Of a DNA stretch of 7,499 bases, positions 1-6,792 are shown in pieces. The number at the start of each line of letters is the position of its first letter. The first letter of the stretch is position 1. The notes under the pieces were generated by a model. It was not told the origin of the DNA. It searched no databases and worked only from the letters and a program-made list of their open reading frames with translations. This DNA is from Microbacteriaceae bacterium (GTDB lineage Bacteria; Actinomycetota; Actinomycetes; Actinomycetales; Microbacteriaceae), in assembly GCA_947486475.1 (NCBI GenBank), contig CANKTR010000044.1, forward strand, positions 1-7,499. The letters are read 5' to 3'. The translations under genes were made by a program, and so were the position numbers.

Positions 1-611
1 CATCCATCGACTTTCCGAAACCACTCGTACTGATTCGACTCATCGTTGGGCTGTATCTCTTCGGGTTGGGAATCGCCTTTCAGATTCGCGCGACGCTCGG
101 ACTCGCACCGTGGGATGTCTTCGGGCAAGGCCTCGCGAACATCACGGGGCTGAGCTTTGGGCTCGCAACCGTGCTCGCGAGCGCCATGATCTTGTTGTTG
201 TGGATCCCACTCAAGCAAAAACCCGGGCTCGGTACCATCTTTAATGCGCTCCTCATCGGACCTTTTATCGATCTGTCGCTTGGGTTCGTTCCGTCAGCGG
301 CCGATTGGGGGATTGTCGGTCAGATTGGGTGGTACGTGCTCGGCATGTCCATCATCGCTCTGGGAACGGGAATCTACATCGGCGCACGGCTCGGGCCGGG
401 GCCGCGCGACGGTCTGATGACGGGGTCCGTGAAGAAGTTCGGCAAACCCGTGTGGATTGTCCGCACGGTGCTCGAGGGTGGGGCAACGCTCATCGGGTTA
501 GCGCTGGGCGGTCCGGCCGGGCTCGGCACCCTGTTGTTCGTTATCGGAATCGGACCAATGGTCCAGGTGTCGATGCGGGCCTTCGGGCTGGTCGACAAGG
601 GCGGAAAATGA
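1..611 (+). CDS. YczE/YitT-like integral membrane protein, 5'-truncated by the window edge
   Basis: The reading frame is open from position 3, so the true start lies to the left; 202 codons are visible, ending in TGA at 609-611. The protein is very hydrophobic, with about five membrane segments. It carries two signatures I associate with the YczE/YyaS/YitT family: a GLAPWDVF stretch near visible residues 33-40 just after the first helix, and GPGPRDGLMTG at visible residues 131-141. A TTG at 66 is an unlikely start because the residues before it already read as the first helix. The family's role is not well established; a transport or regulatory role is sometimes suggested, so no function is assigned. 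Its stop overlaps the next start as ATGA, which suggests co-transcription and coupled translation with the NUDIX gene. Only the first few residues seem to be missing, judged from relatives. Confidence 0.85.
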   Translation, partial: SIDFPKPLVLIRLIVGLYLFGLGIAFQIRATLGLAPWDVFGQGLANITGLSFGLATVLASAMILLLWIPLKQKPGLGTIFNALLIGPFIDLSLGFVPSAADWGIVGQIGWYVLGMSIIALGTGIYIGARLGPGPRDGLMTGSVKKFGKPVWIVRTVLEGGATLIGLALGGPAGLGTLLFVIGIGPMVQVSMRAFGLVDKGGK

Positions 612-1084
612 ACCATCCCGAGGGCAGGACACACGTTCTGCACCGAGAAACCGCCCGAATCGTGCTGCACGACGGTCGGGGCAAATTCCTGCTTATGCAC
701 ACGAGGTTCGACCACCGAGTGGGCTTGCCTCCGCGCTGGATTACGCCCGGTGGCGGAATTGACGACGGCGAGACGCCGCTCGAGGCCGCGGTTCGGGAAT
801 TGCGCGAGGAGACCGGATTGGTCGTGGAACCCAACGCACTGGGCGAGTTGCTCGAGGCAGTGGACGGGTACTGGGATTGGCCGGACGGGAAATACTTTCA
901 CTCGTATGTTGATCATTTCTTTGCGCTTCGAGTTGACGAATTCGAACTGGATCGTTCCGGTTGGATGGAATCCGAGCACCACGACGTCATCGACATTCGC
1001 TGGTGGACACTCGAAGAAATCCGCGCAGAATCGCCGTTCATCGGTCCCGAGCGGTTAATCGAGGTCCTGGAGCGCGTTTCCTAA
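608..1084 (+). CDS. NUDIX hydrolase
   Basis: A 158-residue single-domain NUDIX protein. The complete Nudix box G-x5-E-x7-R-E-U-x-E-E-x-G-U is visible at residues 49-71, with catalytic and metal-binding REL-REE at 63-68. Family members hydrolyse a nucleoside diphosphate linked to another group (NDP-X) using Mg2+; the substrate cannot be read from sequence. A Pro/Trp-rich stretch precedes the box (PPRWITPGG), and an aromatic, His-rich region follows (YWDWPDGKYFHSYVDHFF). The start is the ATG at 608, which overlaps the upstream stop (ATGA) and has an AAGG-type ribosome-binding site 7 bases upstream. The frame stays open further upstream, but that part lies inside the membrane-protein gene and does not resemble a NUDIX domain. 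The length is normal for the family. No signal peptide is seen, so it is likely cytoplasmic. Confidence 0.9.
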   Translation: MNHPEGRTHVLHRETARIVLHDGRGKFLLMHTRFDHRVGLPPRWITPGGGIDDGETPLEAAVRELREETGLVVEPNALGELLEAVDGYWDWPDGKYFHSYVDHFFALRVDEFELDRSGWMESEHHDVIDIRWWTLEEIRAESPFIGPERLIEVLERVS

Positions 1085-1113: not shown

Positions 1114-1141
1114 TTATCCGATAATGTACATTATGTCAGAA
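1114..1141 (+). other. dif: Candidate dif site (XerC/XerD recombination site, chromosome terminus)
   Basis: This 28-base element lies in the convergent gap between the NUDIX gene and trpD. It reads as an 11-base left arm (TTATCCGATAA, 1114-1124), a 6-base centre (TGTACA, 1125-1130) and an 11-base right arm (TTATGTCAGAA, 1131-1141). The core ATAATGTACATTAT (1121-1134) is a perfect 14-bp palindrome. The same stretch of E. coli dif is ATAATGTATATTATGT, so 15 of those 16 bases agree. From memory, predicted actinobacterial dif sites share CCGATAAT, two variable bases, then ACATTATGTCA, which fits exactly at 1118-1136. A dif site is where XerC and XerD resolve chromosome dimers at division. Its uniqueness in the genome cannot be checked here. 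Confidence 0.72.
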
Positions 1142-1183: not shown

Positions 1184-2230
1184 CTAGTTGGTGGCGACGA
1201 CCCAGGCGTCGAGTTTCGCGCTCGCCGCGCCGGAATTAATCGAGTGCGTTGCAACCTCGACGGCCTCGGTCATGCGCTCGACAAACGATCGATCGCGTTC
1301 GGCTGGGTTCTTAGACAACCGATGTGCGACGATTCCCGCTGCCGAGTTCAACACGATGATGTCGCGGGCGGCGTTTTTCTCCCCCGCGAGAACCTTTCGA
1401 GCCAACGCCGCGTTCTCGTCCGGTGTCCCCCCACGAATCTCGTCAATCGTGGAATAGGCGAAACCCACCTCGCGCGGATCAAAATCGTGTTCGGTGATGC
1501 TTCCGCGACTGACCTCGAACACCTTCGAGTGTCCCGTCGTCGTGATCTTGTCGGTTCCGTCTTCGCCTCGATACACGAGTGCCGTCGCGCCACGCTGTTG
1601 GAAAAGTCCGACCGCGAGCGGGATTCGGGCTGGGTTCGACATCCCGAGCGCATTGGCTTCCGGTCGAGCTGGGTTACAGAGCGGTCCGAGAACGTTGAAA
1701 ACCGTCGGAATTGCCAACTCCTGGCGGACCGGGCCGGCGTTCCGGAATCCGGGGTGAAACACCATCGCGTTGATGTACGTCACGCCGATTTCGGCGAAAA
1801 CACGAGCGACACGCTCGGGCTCGAGTGAGATGTTGATACCCAGCGACGTCAGCACATCATTTGCACCCGACTTTGAGCTCGCGGCCCTGTTTCCGTGCTT
1901 GATGACGGGTACTCCAGCCGCGGACACGACAATCGCGGCGATGGACGAGACGTTGATGACCCCGATCGGGTCTCCTCCCGAGCCCACGATATCGACGGCG
2001 TCGGTCGAGATATCGAGCGGAAGCGCGGAGGACAGGATGGCGTCCCGAAAGCCGACGACCTCGTCGACGGACTCCCCCTTGGCGCTGAGAGCAACGAGAA
2101 ATGCGGCCAGTCGAGCGTCGCTCACGTCACCGTTCATGATGTCGGTCATTGCCCGGGACGCCTCGGCCACCGCAAGCGAGCGACCCTCGAGCAGGTCGCT
2201 GAGAAGGGTGGTCCAGTCGTCGTTCGGCAC
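1184..2230 (-). CDS. trpD: Anthranilate phosphoribosyltransferase
   Basis: A 348-residue TrpD, the usual family length. It transfers phosphoribose from PRPP to anthranilate in the second step committed to tryptophan, in the cytoplasm. The helical N-terminal domain covers about residues 1-70. The PRPP-binding glycine loop is GSGGD (83-87), followed by INVSS (92-96). KHGNRAASSKSG (111-122) is the family signature, and the PVRQEL and FNVLGPLCNPARP segments (about 167-190) follow. The late acidic metal motif, usually DGxDE, reads DGTDK here (224-228), so Lys228 stands where Glu is expected. The start is GTG (2228-2230). No well-spaced ribosome-binding site precedes it, but a -10 box is placed so that transcription would begin at the G of GTG. 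No other trp genes are adjacent; the lone divergent trpD beside ctaE matches the M. tuberculosis arrangement. Confidence 0.95.
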   Translation of the reverse strand: MPNDDWTTLLSDLLEGRSLAVAEASRAMTDIMNGDVSDARLAAFLVALSAKGESVDEVVGFRDAILSSALPLDISTDAVDIVGSGGDPIGVINVSSIAAIVVSAAGVPVIKHGNRAASSKSGANDVLTSLGINISLEPERVARVFAEIGVTYINAMVFHPGFRNAGPVRQELAIPTVFNVLGPLCNPARPEANALGMSNPARIPLAVGLFQQRGATALVYRGEDGTDKITTTGHSKVFEVSRGSITEHDFDPREVGFAYSTIDEIRGGTPDENAALARKVLAGEKNAARDIIVLNSAAGIVAHRLSKNPAERDRSFVERMTEAVEVATHSINSGAASAKLDAWVVATN

Positions 2231-2242
2231 TCCCCTAGCCTA
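2230..2242 (-). promoter_or_regulatory. trpD promoter, probably giving a leaderless mRNA
   Basis: On the minus strand TAGGCT (2242 down to 2237) fits the actinobacterial -10 pattern TAnnnT. Six bases (AGGGGA) separate it from the GTG start codon, so the expected +1 is the G of GTG at 2230. AGGGGA touches the start codon and could not work as a Shine-Dalgarno. No good -35 hexamer is seen at 17-base spacing (only a T-rich AATTTT). Confidence 0.55.
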
Positions 2243-2253
2243 GCGTTCACGAT

Positions 2254-2284
2254 GCGCGCAAAATTGATGAAAGGCGCGCAAAAT
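2254..2284. repeat. 11-bp direct repeat, 20-bp period, candidate operator
   Basis: GCGCGCAAAAT occurs at 2254-2264 and again at 2274-2284, identical and 20 bp apart, about two helical turns and so on the same face of the DNA. The left copy lies where the -35 region of trpD should be. The pair lies about 60-90 bp upstream of the ctaE start, a typical activator position. No regulator is identified. Confidence 0.5.
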
Positions 2285-2331
2285 ACGTGCCAAAACACCC
2301 CTATATGGTCGGCTGGACAGCGGAAGTTGGG

Positions 2332-2345
2332 CATAATAGAGGATG
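2332..2345 (+). promoter_or_regulatory. ctaE-qcrCAB promoter -10 region, leaderless or nearly so
   Basis: CATAAT (2332-2337) matches five of six bases of TATAAT. It is followed by 7 bases and then the GTG start of ctaE at 2345. The AGAGGA just before the GTG ends 1 base away, too close for a Shine-Dalgarno, so transcription probably starts at or one base before the start codon. TGGACA (2314-2319) resembles a -35 box, but the 12-base spacer is too short. A second AT-rich box, TATATG (2302-2307), could give a short leader instead. Confidence 0.5.
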
Positions 2346-2968
2346 TGACTAGCGCCTCGATAACCAGACCGCAATCGGTCGTGAATCGGCCCAACGCGGT
2401 GGCCGTCGGGACAATCGTGTGGCTCGCGAGCGAAGTGATGTTCTTCGCCGGGCTGTTCGCGATTTACTTTTCGCTTCGATCGATGGCCCCCGAGATTTGG
2501 GCAGTCCAAACCGAGAAGTTGAGTATCCCCTTCTCGACGCTCAACACCACAATTCTCGTGCTCTCGTCGGTGACGTGCCAGATGGGCGTCTTCGCGGCGG
2601 AGCGTCTGCAACCTCGCCGCACCGGCTGGGCCCCGACAAAGTGGGGCGTTGTCGAATGGTTCTGGCTCACCTACGCGATGGGCGCATTCTTCGTTGTCGG
2701 TCAGGTGTACGAATACGCGATGCTCACAAGTGAATGGGTCATGCTCAACAGCGACGCCTACGGCTCAGCGTTCTATCTCACCACTGGGTTCCACGGTCTG
2801 CACGTGACCGTCGGACTCATTGCCTTCCTGCTCATGATCGGCCGAATTCAAGCCCTCAAGGTTTTCACACACCGCGACGCCATGTCGATGGTCGCCGTGT
2901 CGTACTACTGGCACTTCGTCGATGCGGTGTGGATCGGCCTCTTCCTCGTCATCTACGTCCTGAAATAA
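2345..2968 (+). CDS. ctaE: Cytochrome c oxidase (aa3) subunit III
   Basis: A 207-residue membrane protein with about five hydrophobic segments, matching the short actinobacterial subunit III. Subunit III binds no redox centre; it supports the proton-pumping catalytic subunit I. Visible family marks are NRPNAVAVGTIVWL (14-27) and SEVMFFAG (29-36), whose Glu30 corresponds to the conserved subunit III glutamate; then SSVTCQMGVFAAE, FYLTTGFHGLHVTVGL and the C-terminal SYYWHFVDAVWIGLF. The GTG at 2345 was chosen because family similarity begins just after it and a -10 box ends 7 bases upstream. An in-frame ATG at 2267 would add 26 residues that look unlike the family and would run through the promoter region. 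It is first gene of ctaE-qcrC-qcrA-qcrB; qcrC starts 12 bases after its stop. Confidence 0.95.
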   Translation: MTSASITRPQSVVNRPNAVAVGTIVWLASEVMFFAGLFAIYFSLRSMAPEIWAVQTEKLSIPFSTLNTTILVLSSVTCQMGVFAAERLQPRRTGWAPTKWGVVEWFWLTYAMGAFFVVGQVYEYAMLTSEWVMLNSDAYGSAFYLTTGFHGLHVTVGLIAFLLMIGRIQALKVFTHRDAMSMVAVSYYWHFVDAVWIGLFLVIYVLK

Positions 2969-2980
2969 CGAAAGAACCCC

Positions 2981-3766
2981 ATGCCCCGAAACCTCAACCG
3001 AAAAGGCCGTCGCCACCCGCTCTCGTCGCTTGTCCTCATTCTTGTTGGACTGTTCGTGTTGGGCGCGGCGTATGCAGCCGTGACGGGAACAGCCACTGCT
3101 GCGGATGCGCCCGTTTCGGCAACGCAGATTGAGGATGGAAAGAAACTCTTCGCCTCGAACTGCGCATCGTGTCACGGACTCAGCGCGGCAGGTTCGGCGG
3201 CCGGTCCGTCCTTGATTGGCTCGGGTGCGTTGTCGGTCGAGTTCCAGGTCGGCTCTGGACGCATGCCGATGTCGGGAAGCGGGCCGCAGGCCGAGAAAAA
3301 GCCCGTTCAGTTCACTCAGCCCGAAATTGACGCGATGGCAGCGTGGGTTGCGAGCCTGGCTCCCGGCCCCGCTGTGCCGGAGGCCTCAACACTCACTGGT
3401 GGCGACGCATCCAACGGAGCCGCACTGTTCCGCGTCAACTGCGCAATGTGCCACAACGTCGCGGGTGCTGGTGGTGCTCTGACCGAGGGCAAGTGGGCTC
3501 CCAATCTGAAGAACATCGACCCTGTCCACGTCTACGCGGCGATGGTCACAGGCCCGCAGAACATGCCGGTGTTCTCGGACATGAACATCACCGCAGAAGA
3601 AAAGAACGACATCATCGCGTACCTGAAATTCCTGGACGAGAACCCCTCGGTCGGCGGGATGGACCTCGGATCCCTCGGTCCGGTGTCAGAAGGTCTCTTC
3701 GTCTGGATTTTTGCGCTCGGCGGACTCGTTGCCATCACCATTTGGTTGAGCGCCAAGTCGAACTAG
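2981..3766 (+). CDS. qcrC: Diheme cytochrome c subunit of the cytochrome bcc complex
   Basis: A 261-residue protein with an uncleaved-looking N-terminal anchor (about 14-34), two cytochrome c domains and a C-terminal membrane helix (about 238-256). The heme-binding motifs are CASCH (61-65) and CAMCH (154-158). Likely axial methionines lie in GRMPM (Met95) and QNMPVF (Met195). In actinobacteria this subunit receives electrons from the Rieske protein and passes them directly to the aa3 oxidase, because there is no soluble cytochrome c; the heme domains face outside. The length is normal. The start is the ATG at 2981; the upstream AAAGAA is only a weak ribosome-binding site, so translation may depend partly on coupling to ctaE, which ends 12 bases before. 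Confidence 0.97.
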   Translation: MPRNLNRKGRRHPLSSLVLILVGLFVLGAAYAAVTGTATAADAPVSATQIEDGKKLFASNCASCHGLSAAGSAAGPSLIGSGALSVEFQVGSGRMPMSGSGPQAEKKPVQFTQPEIDAMAAWVASLAPGPAVPEASTLTGGDASNGAALFRVNCAMCHNVAGAGGALTEGKWAPNLKNIDPVHVYAAMVTGPQNMPVFSDMNITAEEKNDIIAYLKFLDENPSVGGMDLGSLGPVSEGLFVWIFALGGLVAITIWLSAKSN

Positions 3767-3787
3767 GGTTAAAGAAAGGTTCATCCC

Positions 3788-4819
3788 ATGGCTGACAAGA
3801 AGTCTGACGTCGTCACGAGCGCAGGCAGCGCGGTGTCACGTCCCGACCGTCTGCAGAATCCAGGGTTCGAACCTGAGCACACGCGCGTTCACGATGAATC
3901 GCCCGATCGGGCGCGCGGAGCGGAACGCGGAATTTCGTTGTTGTTCGCGCTTTCCGGAATCCTCAGCGCGTCAGCGTTTGCACTTAACTTCATTTTTCCC
4001 ATCGTTCCCGGCGACCTCCTGTCGACCCGCTACAACAACATGTTTGTCGGGCTGGCAATCGCCGCCGGGCTGCTGTGTCTCGGCGTCGGCGCCGTCCACT
4101 GGGCCAAGGCTCTGATGCACGGTCACGAGCTCATCGAAGAACGTCACGGAACGCGCGGCAACGACGCTACTCGCGCTCGTGCCGTTGAAATCTTTCAGGA
4201 AGCGAACAAGGAATCGGGTTGGACCCGGCGTCGCCTCTTGCGCAACTCGCTGATCGGGGCTTTCGTGGCGTTGCCGATTCCCGCCGTAGCCCTGTTCCGT
4301 GACCTCGCCCCCGCTGGCACCCCCGAAGAAAAGCTCGCACACACGATTTGGGAAAAGGGTGTCCGTTTGACGCGCGACCCGAACGGTGTGCCCATCAAGG
4401 CCAGTGATGTCACGATCGGTTCGGCGTTCCACGTCATCCCCGAGAACCTTTTAGAACTCGAAGAGGGCTTCCTCGACGAAAAGGCGAAAGCGGCCGTTCT
4501 TCTGATGCGCCTGCCCCTCGACGCCCTCAACGAAACCGAAGACCGCAAGAGCTGGTCGTACGACGGAATCGTTGCGTATTCAAAGATTTGCACCCACGTG
4601 GGCTGCCCGGTGGCGCTGTACGAACAGCAAACCCACAACCTGCTCTGCCCGTGCCACCAGTCGCAGTTTGATGTATCGAACCACTGTGCCGTGATCTTCG
4701 GACCCGCGGCACGCCCACTCCCTCAGTTGCCGATCACGATAGACTCAGAGGGATACTTGGTCGCCCAGAGCGACTTCCTAGAACCAGTTGGACCTAGCTA
4801 TTGGGAGCGTAAACGATGA
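3788..4819 (+). CDS. qcrA: Rieske iron-sulfur subunit of the cytochrome bcc complex
   Basis: A 343-residue protein with a charged N-terminus, membrane segments at about 49-70, 84-106 and 154-174, and a C-terminal Rieske domain. Box 1 is CTHVGC (268-273) and box 2 is CPCHQS (287-292). By homology Cys268, His270, Cys287 and His290 hold the 2Fe-2S cluster, and Cys273-Cys289 form the disulfide. TRRRLLR (146-152) just before the third helix is a twin-arginine motif. In Streptomyces the first two helices are inserted by Sec and the third by Tat, so the folded cluster domain is moved across the membrane; the same is inferred here. A good ribosome-binding site (GAAAGG, 3774-3779) lies 8 bases before the ATG. 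The stop overlaps the qcrB start as ATGA, implying coupled translation. Confidence 0.97.
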   Translation: MADKKSDVVTSAGSAVSRPDRLQNPGFEPEHTRVHDESPDRARGAERGISLLFALSGILSASAFALNFIFPIVPGDLLSTRYNNMFVGLAIAAGLLCLGVGAVHWAKALMHGHELIEERHGTRGNDATRARAVEIFQEANKESGWTRRRLLRNSLIGAFVALPIPAVALFRDLAPAGTPEEKLAHTIWEKGVRLTRDPNGVPIKASDVTIGSAFHVIPENLLELEEGFLDEKAKAAVLLMRLPLDALNETEDRKSWSYDGIVAYSKICTHVGCPVALYEQQTHNLLCPCHQSQFDVSNHCAVIFGPAARPLPQLPITIDSEGYLVAQSDFLEPVGPSYWERKR

Positions 4820-6432
4820 GCGTTGCTACACAAAAAAAGAGCTCGACACCGACATCAAGCGGTGCGGGCATGAAGTTTGTCGGTGGTGCGGCTAATTACA
4901 TTGACGAACGAACCAGCATTTCCGGTGCCGTCAAATTCCTCGGTCGCAAGATCTTCCCCGACCACTGGTCGTTCATGCTCGGCGAAATCTCGTTGTACTC
5001 GTTCGTCGTCATTCTGTTGTCAGGGACATTCCTGACCTTCTTCTACGACCCGTCGATGGTCGAGGTTCACTACGACGGCTCTTATGTTCCTCTCAAGGGA
5101 ATCGAGATGTCTGCGGCGTATTCCTCGACGTTGAACATCACGTTCGACATCCGAGGCGGCCTACTGATGCGCCAGGTACACCACTGGGCCGCATTGCTGT
5201 TCGTTGCGGCCATCGGACTCCACATGTTGCGCGTCTTCTTCACGGGCGCGTTCCGCAAGCCTCGTGAAATCAACTGGGTAATCGGATTCGTTCTCTTCAT
5301 CCTCGCGATGGCCGAAGGATTCACCGGCTACTCATTGCCCGACGACCTGCTCTCGGGTAACGGACTTCGAATAATTGACGGAATGATCAAGGCCATCCCA
5401 GGAATCGGAACCTGGATTTCCTACCTGCTGTTCGGTGGAGAATTCCCAGGAAACGACGTCATCCCGCGTTTGTATGTCCTGCACATCATGCTGTTGCCCG
5501 CTCTTGTCATCGCGCTGATCGCGATTCACATGGTGTTGCTCATCATCAACAAGCACACGCAATTCGCCGGACCGGGTCGCACGAACGACAACGTCGTAGG
5601 GTCGCCCATCCTTCCCGTCTTCGCCGCGAAGGCCGGTGGATTCTTCTTCCTCGTCTTCGGAATCATCATGTTGATTGCGTCGCTCTTCACAATCAACCCG
5701 ATTTGGAACTATGGTCCGTATGACCCCTCCCCCGTATCGGCCGGTACACAGCCGGACTGGTACATCGGATTCGCGGATGGAATGCTTCGGCTAATGCCGT
5801 CCGGCTGGGAATTTGTCGTCGACGGATACACGTGGTCACTGAACCTCTTAGTTCCAATCGTCGTGCTCATGTTGTTCATCGTCATCGTCATGGTCTACCC
5901 CTTCATCGAGGCGTGGGTCACGGGCGACAAGCGCGAGCACCACATCGCCGAGCGTCCACGCAACCAACCCACCCGCACCGCGATTGGCGCTGCGGGAGTC
6001 ACCTTTTACGCGGTCCTGTGGGCCGGAGCGGCGTCCGACCTCATCGCAACGCACTTCCGCACCACGATCGAGGGCGTTATTCTCACGCTCCAGATCATGC
6101 TCTTCGTTGCTCCCGTTGCCGCGTTCTGGATGGCCAAAAAGATTGCACTCGCTCTTCAGCGAAAAGACCGCGAACTGGTTCTGCACGGATACGAGTCGAG
6201 CCGCATTGTCCGTCTGCCCGGCGGGGAATATCGCGAGATTCACACTCCGCTCTCCGAGTTTGAGCAGTGGAAACTTGTGTCGTTCGACGAATATGCCCCG
6301 GAGCAACTGCGACCGAACGCTCGTGGAAAGATCACCATCGGTGCTCGCGTGCGGTCGTCGGTCTCACGTTTCTACTTTGAAGACCGCATTGCCCCGGTCA
6401 CCACGAGGGAACTCGAGTCACAAGAGCACTAG
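4816..6432 (+). CDS. qcrB: Cytochrome b subunit of the cytochrome bcc complex
   Basis: A 538-residue polytopic protein with about eight or nine membrane segments and a soluble C-terminal tail of about 100 residues, as usual for actinobacteria. The two b hemes are expected on His122/His136 (QVHHWAALLFVAAIGLHM) and His223/His238 (LHIMLLPALVIALIAIHM). The first pair is separated by 13 residues and the second by 14, a b6f-like spacing also present in mycobacterial QcrB. The quinol-oxidation-site motif, PEWY in bc1 complexes, reads PDWY (313-316). The protein oxidises menaquinol and splits its electrons between the Rieske cluster and the b hemes. The start is the ATG at 4816 inside the qcrA stop, with GGGAG 8 bases upstream. 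It is last gene of the operon; a strong terminator follows 11 bases after the stop. Confidence 0.97.
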   Translation: MSVATQKKSSTPTSSGAGMKFVGGAANYIDERTSISGAVKFLGRKIFPDHWSFMLGEISLYSFVVILLSGTFLTFFYDPSMVEVHYDGSYVPLKGIEMSAAYSSTLNITFDIRGGLLMRQVHHWAALLFVAAIGLHMLRVFFTGAFRKPREINWVIGFVLFILAMAEGFTGYSLPDDLLSGNGLRIIDGMIKAIPGIGTWISYLLFGGEFPGNDVIPRLYVLHIMLLPALVIALIAIHMVLLIINKHTQFAGPGRTNDNVVGSPILPVFAAKAGGFFFLVFGIIMLIASLFTINPIWNYGPYDPSPVSAGTQPDWYIGFADGMLRLMPSGWEFVVDGYTWSLNLLVPIVVLMLFIVIVMVYPFIEAWVTGDKREHHIAERPRNQPTRTAIGAAGVTFYAVLWAGAASDLIATHFRTTIEGVILTLQIMLFVAPVAAFWMAKKIALALQRKDRELVLHGYESSRIVRLPGGEYREIHTPLSEFEQWKLVSFDEYAPEQLRPNARGKITIGARVRSSVSRFYFEDRIAPVTTRELESQEH

Positions 6433-6507: not shown

Positions 6508-6792
6508 TCAGCGCGAAAACGCATTGACGATTGCCATCACTATGACGAGGATAATGAATCCGGTTGCGAGACAGCTAAAGCCCGACAGGATTGACGACAC
6601 GCATCCCCCACCCTGCTTGCCGACGACGTTAATAACGAGGTTGGTGTTAGGCGGTAGTTCGAAGGACACCGGATTACCCGGGGTGGGATCGACGTATTTG
6701 ACGTCGGGCTCGTCGGTCGTGCCGTCGGCGCCGGCGTTCGCGCCGGTTTCGGAATCTTCAGGTTCGGGAAGTGGTCCGCGAGGTCTAGTCAC
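6508..6792 (-). CDS. Unrecognised small single-span membrane protein (94 residues)
   Basis: I do not recognise a family. Residues 1-38 are rich in Pro, Gly, Asp and Glu and look disordered. Residues 39-63 (NPVSFELPPNTNLVINVVGKQGGG) could form a short beta-rich segment. Residues about 72-92 are a strongly hydrophobic membrane helix, and the protein ends NAFSR. Cys64 and Cys74 lie just before and at the start of the helix. Support for it being real: a GTG start at 6790-6792 with a -10 box TAGTGT exactly 6 bases upstream, typical codon use, and a position directly after ctaF. M. tuberculosis also has small membrane-protein genes (Rv2197c, mmpS3) between qcrB and ctaF, but no clear similarity is visible. 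A role in assembling the bcc-aa3 supercomplex is possible from position only. Confidence 0.7.
   Translation of the reverse strand: MTRPRGPLPEPEDSETGANAGADGTTDEPDVKYVDPTPGNPVSFELPPNTNLVINVVGKQGGGCVSSILSGFSCLATGFIILVIVMAIVNAFSR

What the first reader, a model, noticed from the sequence alone, without database searches (positions are those of the whole stretch)
1114..1141. Candidate dif site, possibly marking the replication terminus
A 14-bp perfect palindrome flanked by bases that match the dif layout (11-base arms, 6-base centre) lies in a convergent non-coding gap. Of the 16 bases ATAATGTACATTATGT, 15 agree with E. coli dif. Base composition gives weak support: hand counts on the + strand give 70 G to 45 C over 301-480, but 45 G to 66 C over three lines inside qcrB (5281-5340, 5701-5760, 5941-6000), the direction expected if skew flips near here. 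The skew sample is small and mixed with coding bias. If right, trpD and the respiratory genes sit at the chromosome terminus, with qcrCAB read against the fork.
Basis: partly seen in the sequence, partly recalled or inferred. Interest (0 to 1): 0.75.

Follow-up and report, generated by a model that had tools for sequence, protein, structure and literature searches.

The report
Chromosome dimer-resolution (dif) site, Microbacteriaceae
This short palindrome is almost certainly the ordinary dif site, the spot at the far end of the chromosome where Xer recombinases cut joined daughter chromosomes apart; it is real and well placed, but of a well-known kind.

Summary
Window 1114-1141 has the 11-6-11 dif layout; 15 of 16 core bases match E. 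coli dif and 20 of 28 match the published Frankia dif. It lies in a 99-bp gap between convergent genes.

The window's own genome is not held, so its place there is inferred from relatives. The nearest held genome has one copy. In the family, 181 of 299 genomes match with at most 2 mismatches, 179 of them once. Where dif and dnaA share a contig, they lie 0.40-0.50 of the chromosome apart in 32 of 32 genomes scored.

Polar words RGGGGAG point to the site from both sides: 302 to 9 over 55 loci, 4 to 0 in the window. Such words are already in print for corynebacteria. GC skew is weak support.

In 39 of 39 family genomes scored, qcrB is transcribed away from dif, so against the fork; in 29 it lies within 24 kb. 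I found no report of this, but inherited gene order explains it.

Verdict: a real dif site, a new member of a known kind; low interest.

The parts
1114..1141 (+). dif site, 28 bp (11-6-11)
   Evidence: 15/16 core bases of E. coli dif, 20/28 of Frankia alni dif; single copy in the nearest genome held; one close match in each of the 6 congeneric genomes sampled
1114..1124 (+). left arm, presumed XerC-binding half-site (assignment of arms recalled from E. coli)
   Evidence: TTATCCGATAA; CCGATAA is the same in the 13 sequences, which were picked with at most 2 mismatches
1125..1130 (+). central 6 bp (TGTACA), where strand exchange is expected
   Evidence: differs among congeners (TGCACA, TATACA, TACACA) while the inner arms stay
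1131..1141 (+). right arm, presumed XerD-binding half-site (assignment recalled)
   Evidence: TTATGTCAGAA; TTATGTCA is the same in the 13 sequences, picked with at most 2 mismatches
1379..1385 (-). polar word GGGGGAG pointing to dif (AIMS/KOPS-like), in trpD; also fits both published corynebacterial octamers
2072..2078 (-). polar word GGGGGAG pointing to dif, in trpD
2230..2236 (-). polar word AGGGGAG pointing to dif, overlapping the first base of the trpD open frame; it may instead be part of a ribosome-binding sequence, so it is weak evidence
5727..5733 (-). polar word GGGGGAG pointing to dif, antisense in qcrB; also fits the published octamer (T/C)GGGGGAG
6604..6611 (-). published octamer G(A/T/C)GGGGGA pointing to dif
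611..1084 (+). Nudix hydrolase gene, ends 29 bp before dif
   Evidence: Pfam PF00293, 77.9 bits
1184..2230 (-). trpD (anthranilate phosphoribosyltransferase), ends 42 bp after dif
   Evidence: Pfam PF00591 and PF02885; the name trpD is recalled from family and context
2369..6432 (+). ctaE-qcrC-qcrA-qcrB, transcribed away from dif (start of ctaE not determined)
   Evidence: Pfam COX3, cytochrome c, QcrA_N/Rieske, cytochrome b; near dif in relatives

Best explanation
It is the chromosomal dif site of a small-genome Microbacteriaceae bacterium. After an odd number of crossovers between sister chromosomes, the two circles are joined into a dimer. FtsK at the division septum pumps DNA, steered by polar words that point to the terminus (here RGGGGAG), until two dif copies meet. 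Two Xer tyrosine recombinases bound to the two arms then exchange strands at the 6-bp centre and free the two chromosomes. Shown here: the sequence, its conservation, single copy and position in relatives, the polarity switch at the site, and Xer and FtsK-gamma genes in congeners. Inferred: that the proteins bind and recombine this site, and that RGGGGAG steers FtsK in these bacteria.
For: Sequence match to published dif sites. One copy with up to 3 mismatches in the nearest genome, which is 83% complete. In the family, 181 of 299 sampled genomes match the 21-mer with at most 2 mismatches; no row shows a match of the reversed control pattern, and only G046 and G110 show two matches (my reading of the table). 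The 6 genomes of the genus in that sample have one each. An exact 21-mer scan of genome contigs gave 55 stretches, one match each; apart from L015, titled only 'uncultured bacterium', the titles name actinobacteria. dif-dnaA separation is 0.404-0.495 of the chromosome in 32 of 32 genomes of the family where I had both on one contig, and 0.456-0.498 in 23 of 24 of other families, the exception being 0.282. RGGGGAG points to dif 71:2, 148:6 and 176:7 within about 200 kb in G068, G182 and G236, 302:9 over the 55 exact loci (47 of 54 loci that have the word show none pointing away), and 4:0 in the window. In G182 the switch lies between 483 bp left and 178 bp right of dif; in G236 between 514 bp left and 60 bp right. 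Flanks diverge while the site stays. XerD model over cut-off in 6 of 6 congeners, with a second Xer paralogue in 6 of 6; FtsK-gamma in 5 of 6.
Against: The window's own genome is not held, so copy number and position there are not tested. 118 of 299 family genomes show no match at 2 mismatches, and 209 of 345 class genomes none with the free-centre pattern; more diverged dif sites would explain this, but I did not look for them. Cumulative GC skew peaks 82 kb (G182) and 87 kb (G068) from dif, and in G236 skew is negative on both sides. The XerC model TIGR02224 is over its cut-off in 0 of 6 congeners, though also in only 2 of 14 control genomes. FtsK-gamma was not found in the draft G232. RGGGGAG was chosen after seeing the data: it came up in G236 and was widened.
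Confidence: 0.97

Rival explanations
1. A palindromic operator bound by a transcription factor that controls trpD or the qcr genes.
For: It is a short perfect palindrome near genes.
Against: Both flanking genes end here, so no promoter is expected, and the simple sigma-70-type scan of 1040-1240 found none. The same 21-mer occurs in 55 stretches across actinobacteria, and only 8 of those 55 loci hold a relative of the window's genes near it.
Confidence: 0.01
2. A bidirectional transcription terminator between the convergent genes.
For: It sits in a convergent gap and the predicted RNA has a small hairpin there.
Against: No terminator-like site at 1040-1240; the fold of 1085-1183 is no better than shuffles (z -0.57); Rfam at gathering scores found nothing in the window.
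Confidence: 0.01
3. A dif-like attachment site carried by an integrated phage or plasmid that uses the host Xer proteins, rather than the chromosome's own site.
For: Such elements exist (recalled), and one relative, G110, carries a second variant on another contig.
Against: No integrase or other mobile-element family among the 9 window proteins scanned, 2 of which have no Pfam match; the same arrangement recurs in congeners with one copy per genome.
Confidence: 0.01

Closest known systems
Actinobacterial dif (Frankia alni dif, CACGCCGATAATGCACATTATGTCAAGT, as given in PMC3025954, passages)
   Same: 28-bp 11-6-11 layout; CCGATAATG(C/T)ACATTATGTCA shared
   Different: Outer arm bases and one central base (20 of 28 identical); a predicted site, the paper says that none was experimentally confirmed in Actinobacteria
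E. coli dif
   Same: 15 of 16 core bases; same layout
   Different: Outer arms (18 of 28 identical)
Architecture imparting sequences of corynebacteria, G(A/T/C)GGGGGA and (T/C)GGGGGAG (PMC2830990, passages; it cites Hendrickson and Lawrence 2006, not read)
   Same: The polar words found here around dif are the same family and change strand at dif
   Different: Here seen in Microbacteriaceae and other actinobacteria; the pooled set also includes AGGGGAG (89:0)
KOPS (GGGNAGGG) of E. coli and FtsK (as given in PMC13342612, passages)
   Same: Polarity switch at dif
   Different: GGGNAGGG itself is hardly polar here: 11:14 in G182, 51:35 in G236, 15:13 in G068

Membership tests
chromosomal dif site | 28 bp with two 11-bp arms and 6-bp centre resembling known dif | tested here: met
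chromosomal dif site | one copy per chromosome | tested here: met
   in the nearest genome, 83% complete, and in the 6 congeners sampled; own genome not held
chromosomal dif site | lies opposite the origin | tested here: met
   in relatives only: 32 of 32 scored in the family, 23 of 24 in other families; own genome not held
chromosomal dif site | GC-skew switch at the site | tested here: inconclusive
   G068 20-kb samples agree: 8 of 9 negative to the right, 10 of 11 positive to the left; cumulative maximum off by 82 and 87 kb in two genomes, not near dif in G236
chromosomal dif site | polar FtsK-type words switch strand at the site | tested here: met
   that they act on FtsK is not tested
chromosomal dif site | XerC and XerD encoded | tested here: inconclusive
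   XerD model over cut-off in 6 of 6 congeners, second Xer paralogue in 6 of 6; XerC model over cut-off in 0 of 6, best score per genome 300-319 bits against 335
chromosomal dif site | FtsK with gamma domain encoded | tested here: met
   5 of 6 congeners; not found in the draft G232
chromosomal dif site | binding and recombination by XerC/XerD | not testable with these tools
   needs protein

The most novel reading that the evidence does not exclude
The side-by-side placing of dif and the trpD-ctaE-qcrCAB block, with the respiratory operon always transcribed away from dif and so against the incoming fork, is maintained by selection (last-replicated, lowest copy number, head-on), not merely inherited.
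Probability: 0.12. Interest if true: 0.5.

Novelty: new member of a known kind. Interest (0 to 1): 0.22.

Why it matters
It fixes the likely terminus of this chromosome to within a few kilobases and shows that a dif site could be picked out of raw sequence. It also places a core respiratory operon at the terminus, read against the fork, in the family genomes scored, which could serve to study head-on transcription of an important operon.

Tried and rejected
GC skew as the main proof: rejected, because it is weak in these genomes; a cumulative T-minus-A curve did little better, peaking 11 kb, 83 kb and 105 kb from dif in G182, G068 and G236. E. coli KOPS GGGNAGGG: rejected as the local polar word. 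Terminator, RNA family and promoter were looked for and not found. For the dif-qcrCAB neighbourhood I saw no report in the listings of four searches of the held papers; these were listings, and most subscription papers are not held.

Rows dropped and choices: the 40 family genomes were picked by me from the 299 (6 congeners, plus genomes whose match lay on a first or long contig). One search used 39 of the 40: G001 was dropped because dif and qcrB lie on different contigs. For dif-dnaA it used 32 of 39, since 7 had them on different contigs. One search used 31 of the 39 for recA and qcrB: those 7 and G069 were left out, G069 by my own omission. The 40 genomes of other families were also picked by me; one search used 30 of them: 8 have dif and qcrB on different contigs; G416 and G453 share a contig but I left them out. 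Chromosome lengths are mostly the rounded assembly sizes of the search tables, and positions were typed by hand from the tables. Only the best qcrB match per genome was used.

Full report
What is there. Bases 1114-1141 read TTATCCGATAATGTACATTATGTCAGAA. The inner 14 bases are a perfect palindrome, and the layout is that of dif: an 11-base arm, a 6-base centre and an 11-base arm. It matches E. coli dif at 18 of 28 positions (15 of 16 in the core), B. subtilis at 17 and Frankia alni at 20 (the published sites were seen as passages of PMC3025954). With up to 3 mismatches, 1 of 200 shuffled windows gave a match to the free-centre pattern; an E. coli-based pattern at 3 mismatches did not find the site. 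The site lies in the 99-bp gap between the end of a Nudix gene (1084) and the end of trpD (1184).

Relatives. The window's genome is not held. The nearest one, G001, shares 40% of sampled 31-mers and has one match with up to 3 mismatches, identical over the 21-mer. In a sample of its family 181 of 299 genomes have a match with at most 2 mismatches; by my reading of the table 179 of these have one match, G046 and G110 two, and no row shows a match of the reversed control pattern. The six genomes of the genus in that sample have one each; the inner arms hold, while the centre and the outermost bases differ. The 2-mismatch rule favours conserved arms, so this last point is illustrative only. In a sample of the class, 136 of 345 genomes match a pattern with a free centre. 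An exact scan of genome contigs gave 55 stretches, one match each; apart from L015, titled only 'uncultured bacterium', the titles name actinobacteria such as Microbacterium, Corynebacterium, Actinomyces, Bifidobacterium and Cellulomonas.

Position. Where I had dif and dnaA on one contig, their separation is 0.404-0.495 of the chromosome in 32 of 32 genomes of the family (19 of these are single-contig) and 0.456-0.498 in 23 of 24 of other families, with one at 0.282. Lengths are mostly rounded sizes.

Skew. In the congener G068, 20-kb samples are C-rich to the right of dif (8 of 9) and G-rich to the left (10 of 11) as far as dnaA. But the cumulative maximum over about 400 kb is 87 kb from dif in G068 and 82 kb in G182, and in G236 skew is negative on both sides.

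Polar words. Counting 8-mers that point to dif on both sides brought up CGGGGGAG in G236 (108:2). It was then found in the other sets. In 55 pooled loci GGGGGAG is the most polar (213:9) of 3242 7-mer pairs with at least 50 counts. RGGGGAG, a widening made, is 302:9 in those loci, 71:2 in G068, 148:6 in G182 and 176:7 in G236; in G182 and G236 the nearest properly pointing words bracket dif within 0.7 kb, and the nearest wrong ones are 31 kb or more away. The window has four, all right of the site and pointing to it, none away; its 1.1 kb left of the site has none. One of the four, 2230-2236, overlaps the start of trpD and may be a ribosome-binding sequence. The published octamers occur on the minus strand at 1379, 1380, 5727 and 6604 and not on the plus strand. 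Other arrangements of the same bases are less polar (GGGAGGG 63:17, GAGGGGG 49:20, GGGGAGG 81:15). This is not new: passages of PMC2830990, PMC3350403 and PMC3219685 use the octamers G(A/T/C)GGGGGA and (T/C)GGGGGAG to place dif in corynebacteria, the first citing Hendrickson and Lawrence 2006 (not read) for them.

Machinery. The six congeners each have two Xer-type genes (the second is cut by a contig end in G001); one passes the XerD cut-off in all six, neither passes the XerC cut-off. The second gene scores higher with the XerC model than with the XerD model in six of six (e.g. G132, 312.9 against 267.1 bits), which suggests, without proof, that it is XerC. FtsK-gamma is found in five of six.

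Neighbourhood. qcrB lies within 24 kb of dif, on the same side and strand relative to dif, in 29 of 39 family genomes scored; 2 more lie on that side at 53 and 84 kb, and 8 lie on the other side at 140-303 kb in inverted orientation. In all 39, therefore, qcrB is transcribed away from dif, against a fork that ends there. In 31 genomes scored for both, qcrB is transcribed away in 31 and within 25 kb in 21; recA is transcribed toward dif in 31 and never within 25 kb. In other families qcrB is 39 kb to 2.6 Mb away and transcribed away from dif in 23 of 30. With a tblastn of the window's genes, trpD ends 66-1568 bp after dif in the six congeners and 0.35-5 kb after it in four further family genomes, followed by ctaE and qcr genes; of the 55 exact-dif loci, most of them 8 kb long, 8 have any hit, among them Micrococcus lylae (L049) with trpD at 2.4 kb. 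Symmetric inversions that cross the terminus keep a gene's direction relative to the fork, and inverted DNA is reported to be lacking near the terminus in Actinobacteria among other groups (PMC5993296, passages), so inheritance explains this without selection on the operon.

Conclusion. The finding is correct and ordinary: a dif site. The one part of which I saw no report is the conserved dif-trpD-ctaE-qcrCAB neighbourhood (listings), and its simplest cause is conserved gene order.

Noticed in passing
window 1184-6432; L233-L241, L088, L049: dif, trpD, ctaE and qcr genes stand together in the Microbacteriaceae loci looked at and in Micrococcus lylae, with qcrB transcribed away from dif in 39 of 39 family genomes scored.
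   Followed up: partly
G110:C2:38789-38809 and G046 (family scan): Two of 181 genomes with a match have a second dif-like site; in G110 it is on another contig with a different centre, perhaps a plasmid with its own dif.
   Followed up: no
G578: Three dif-pattern matches in one genome of another family, on three contigs, two of them identical.
   Followed up: no
G345: dif lies only 0.282 of the chromosome from dnaA in a single-contig genome, against 0.456-0.498 in the 23 others of other families: a lopsided chromosome, an assembly error or a chance match.
   Followed up: no
   Followed up: no
window 3-611: Open frame at the window start with no Pfam match, with relatives left of dif in the congeners.
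   Followed up: partly
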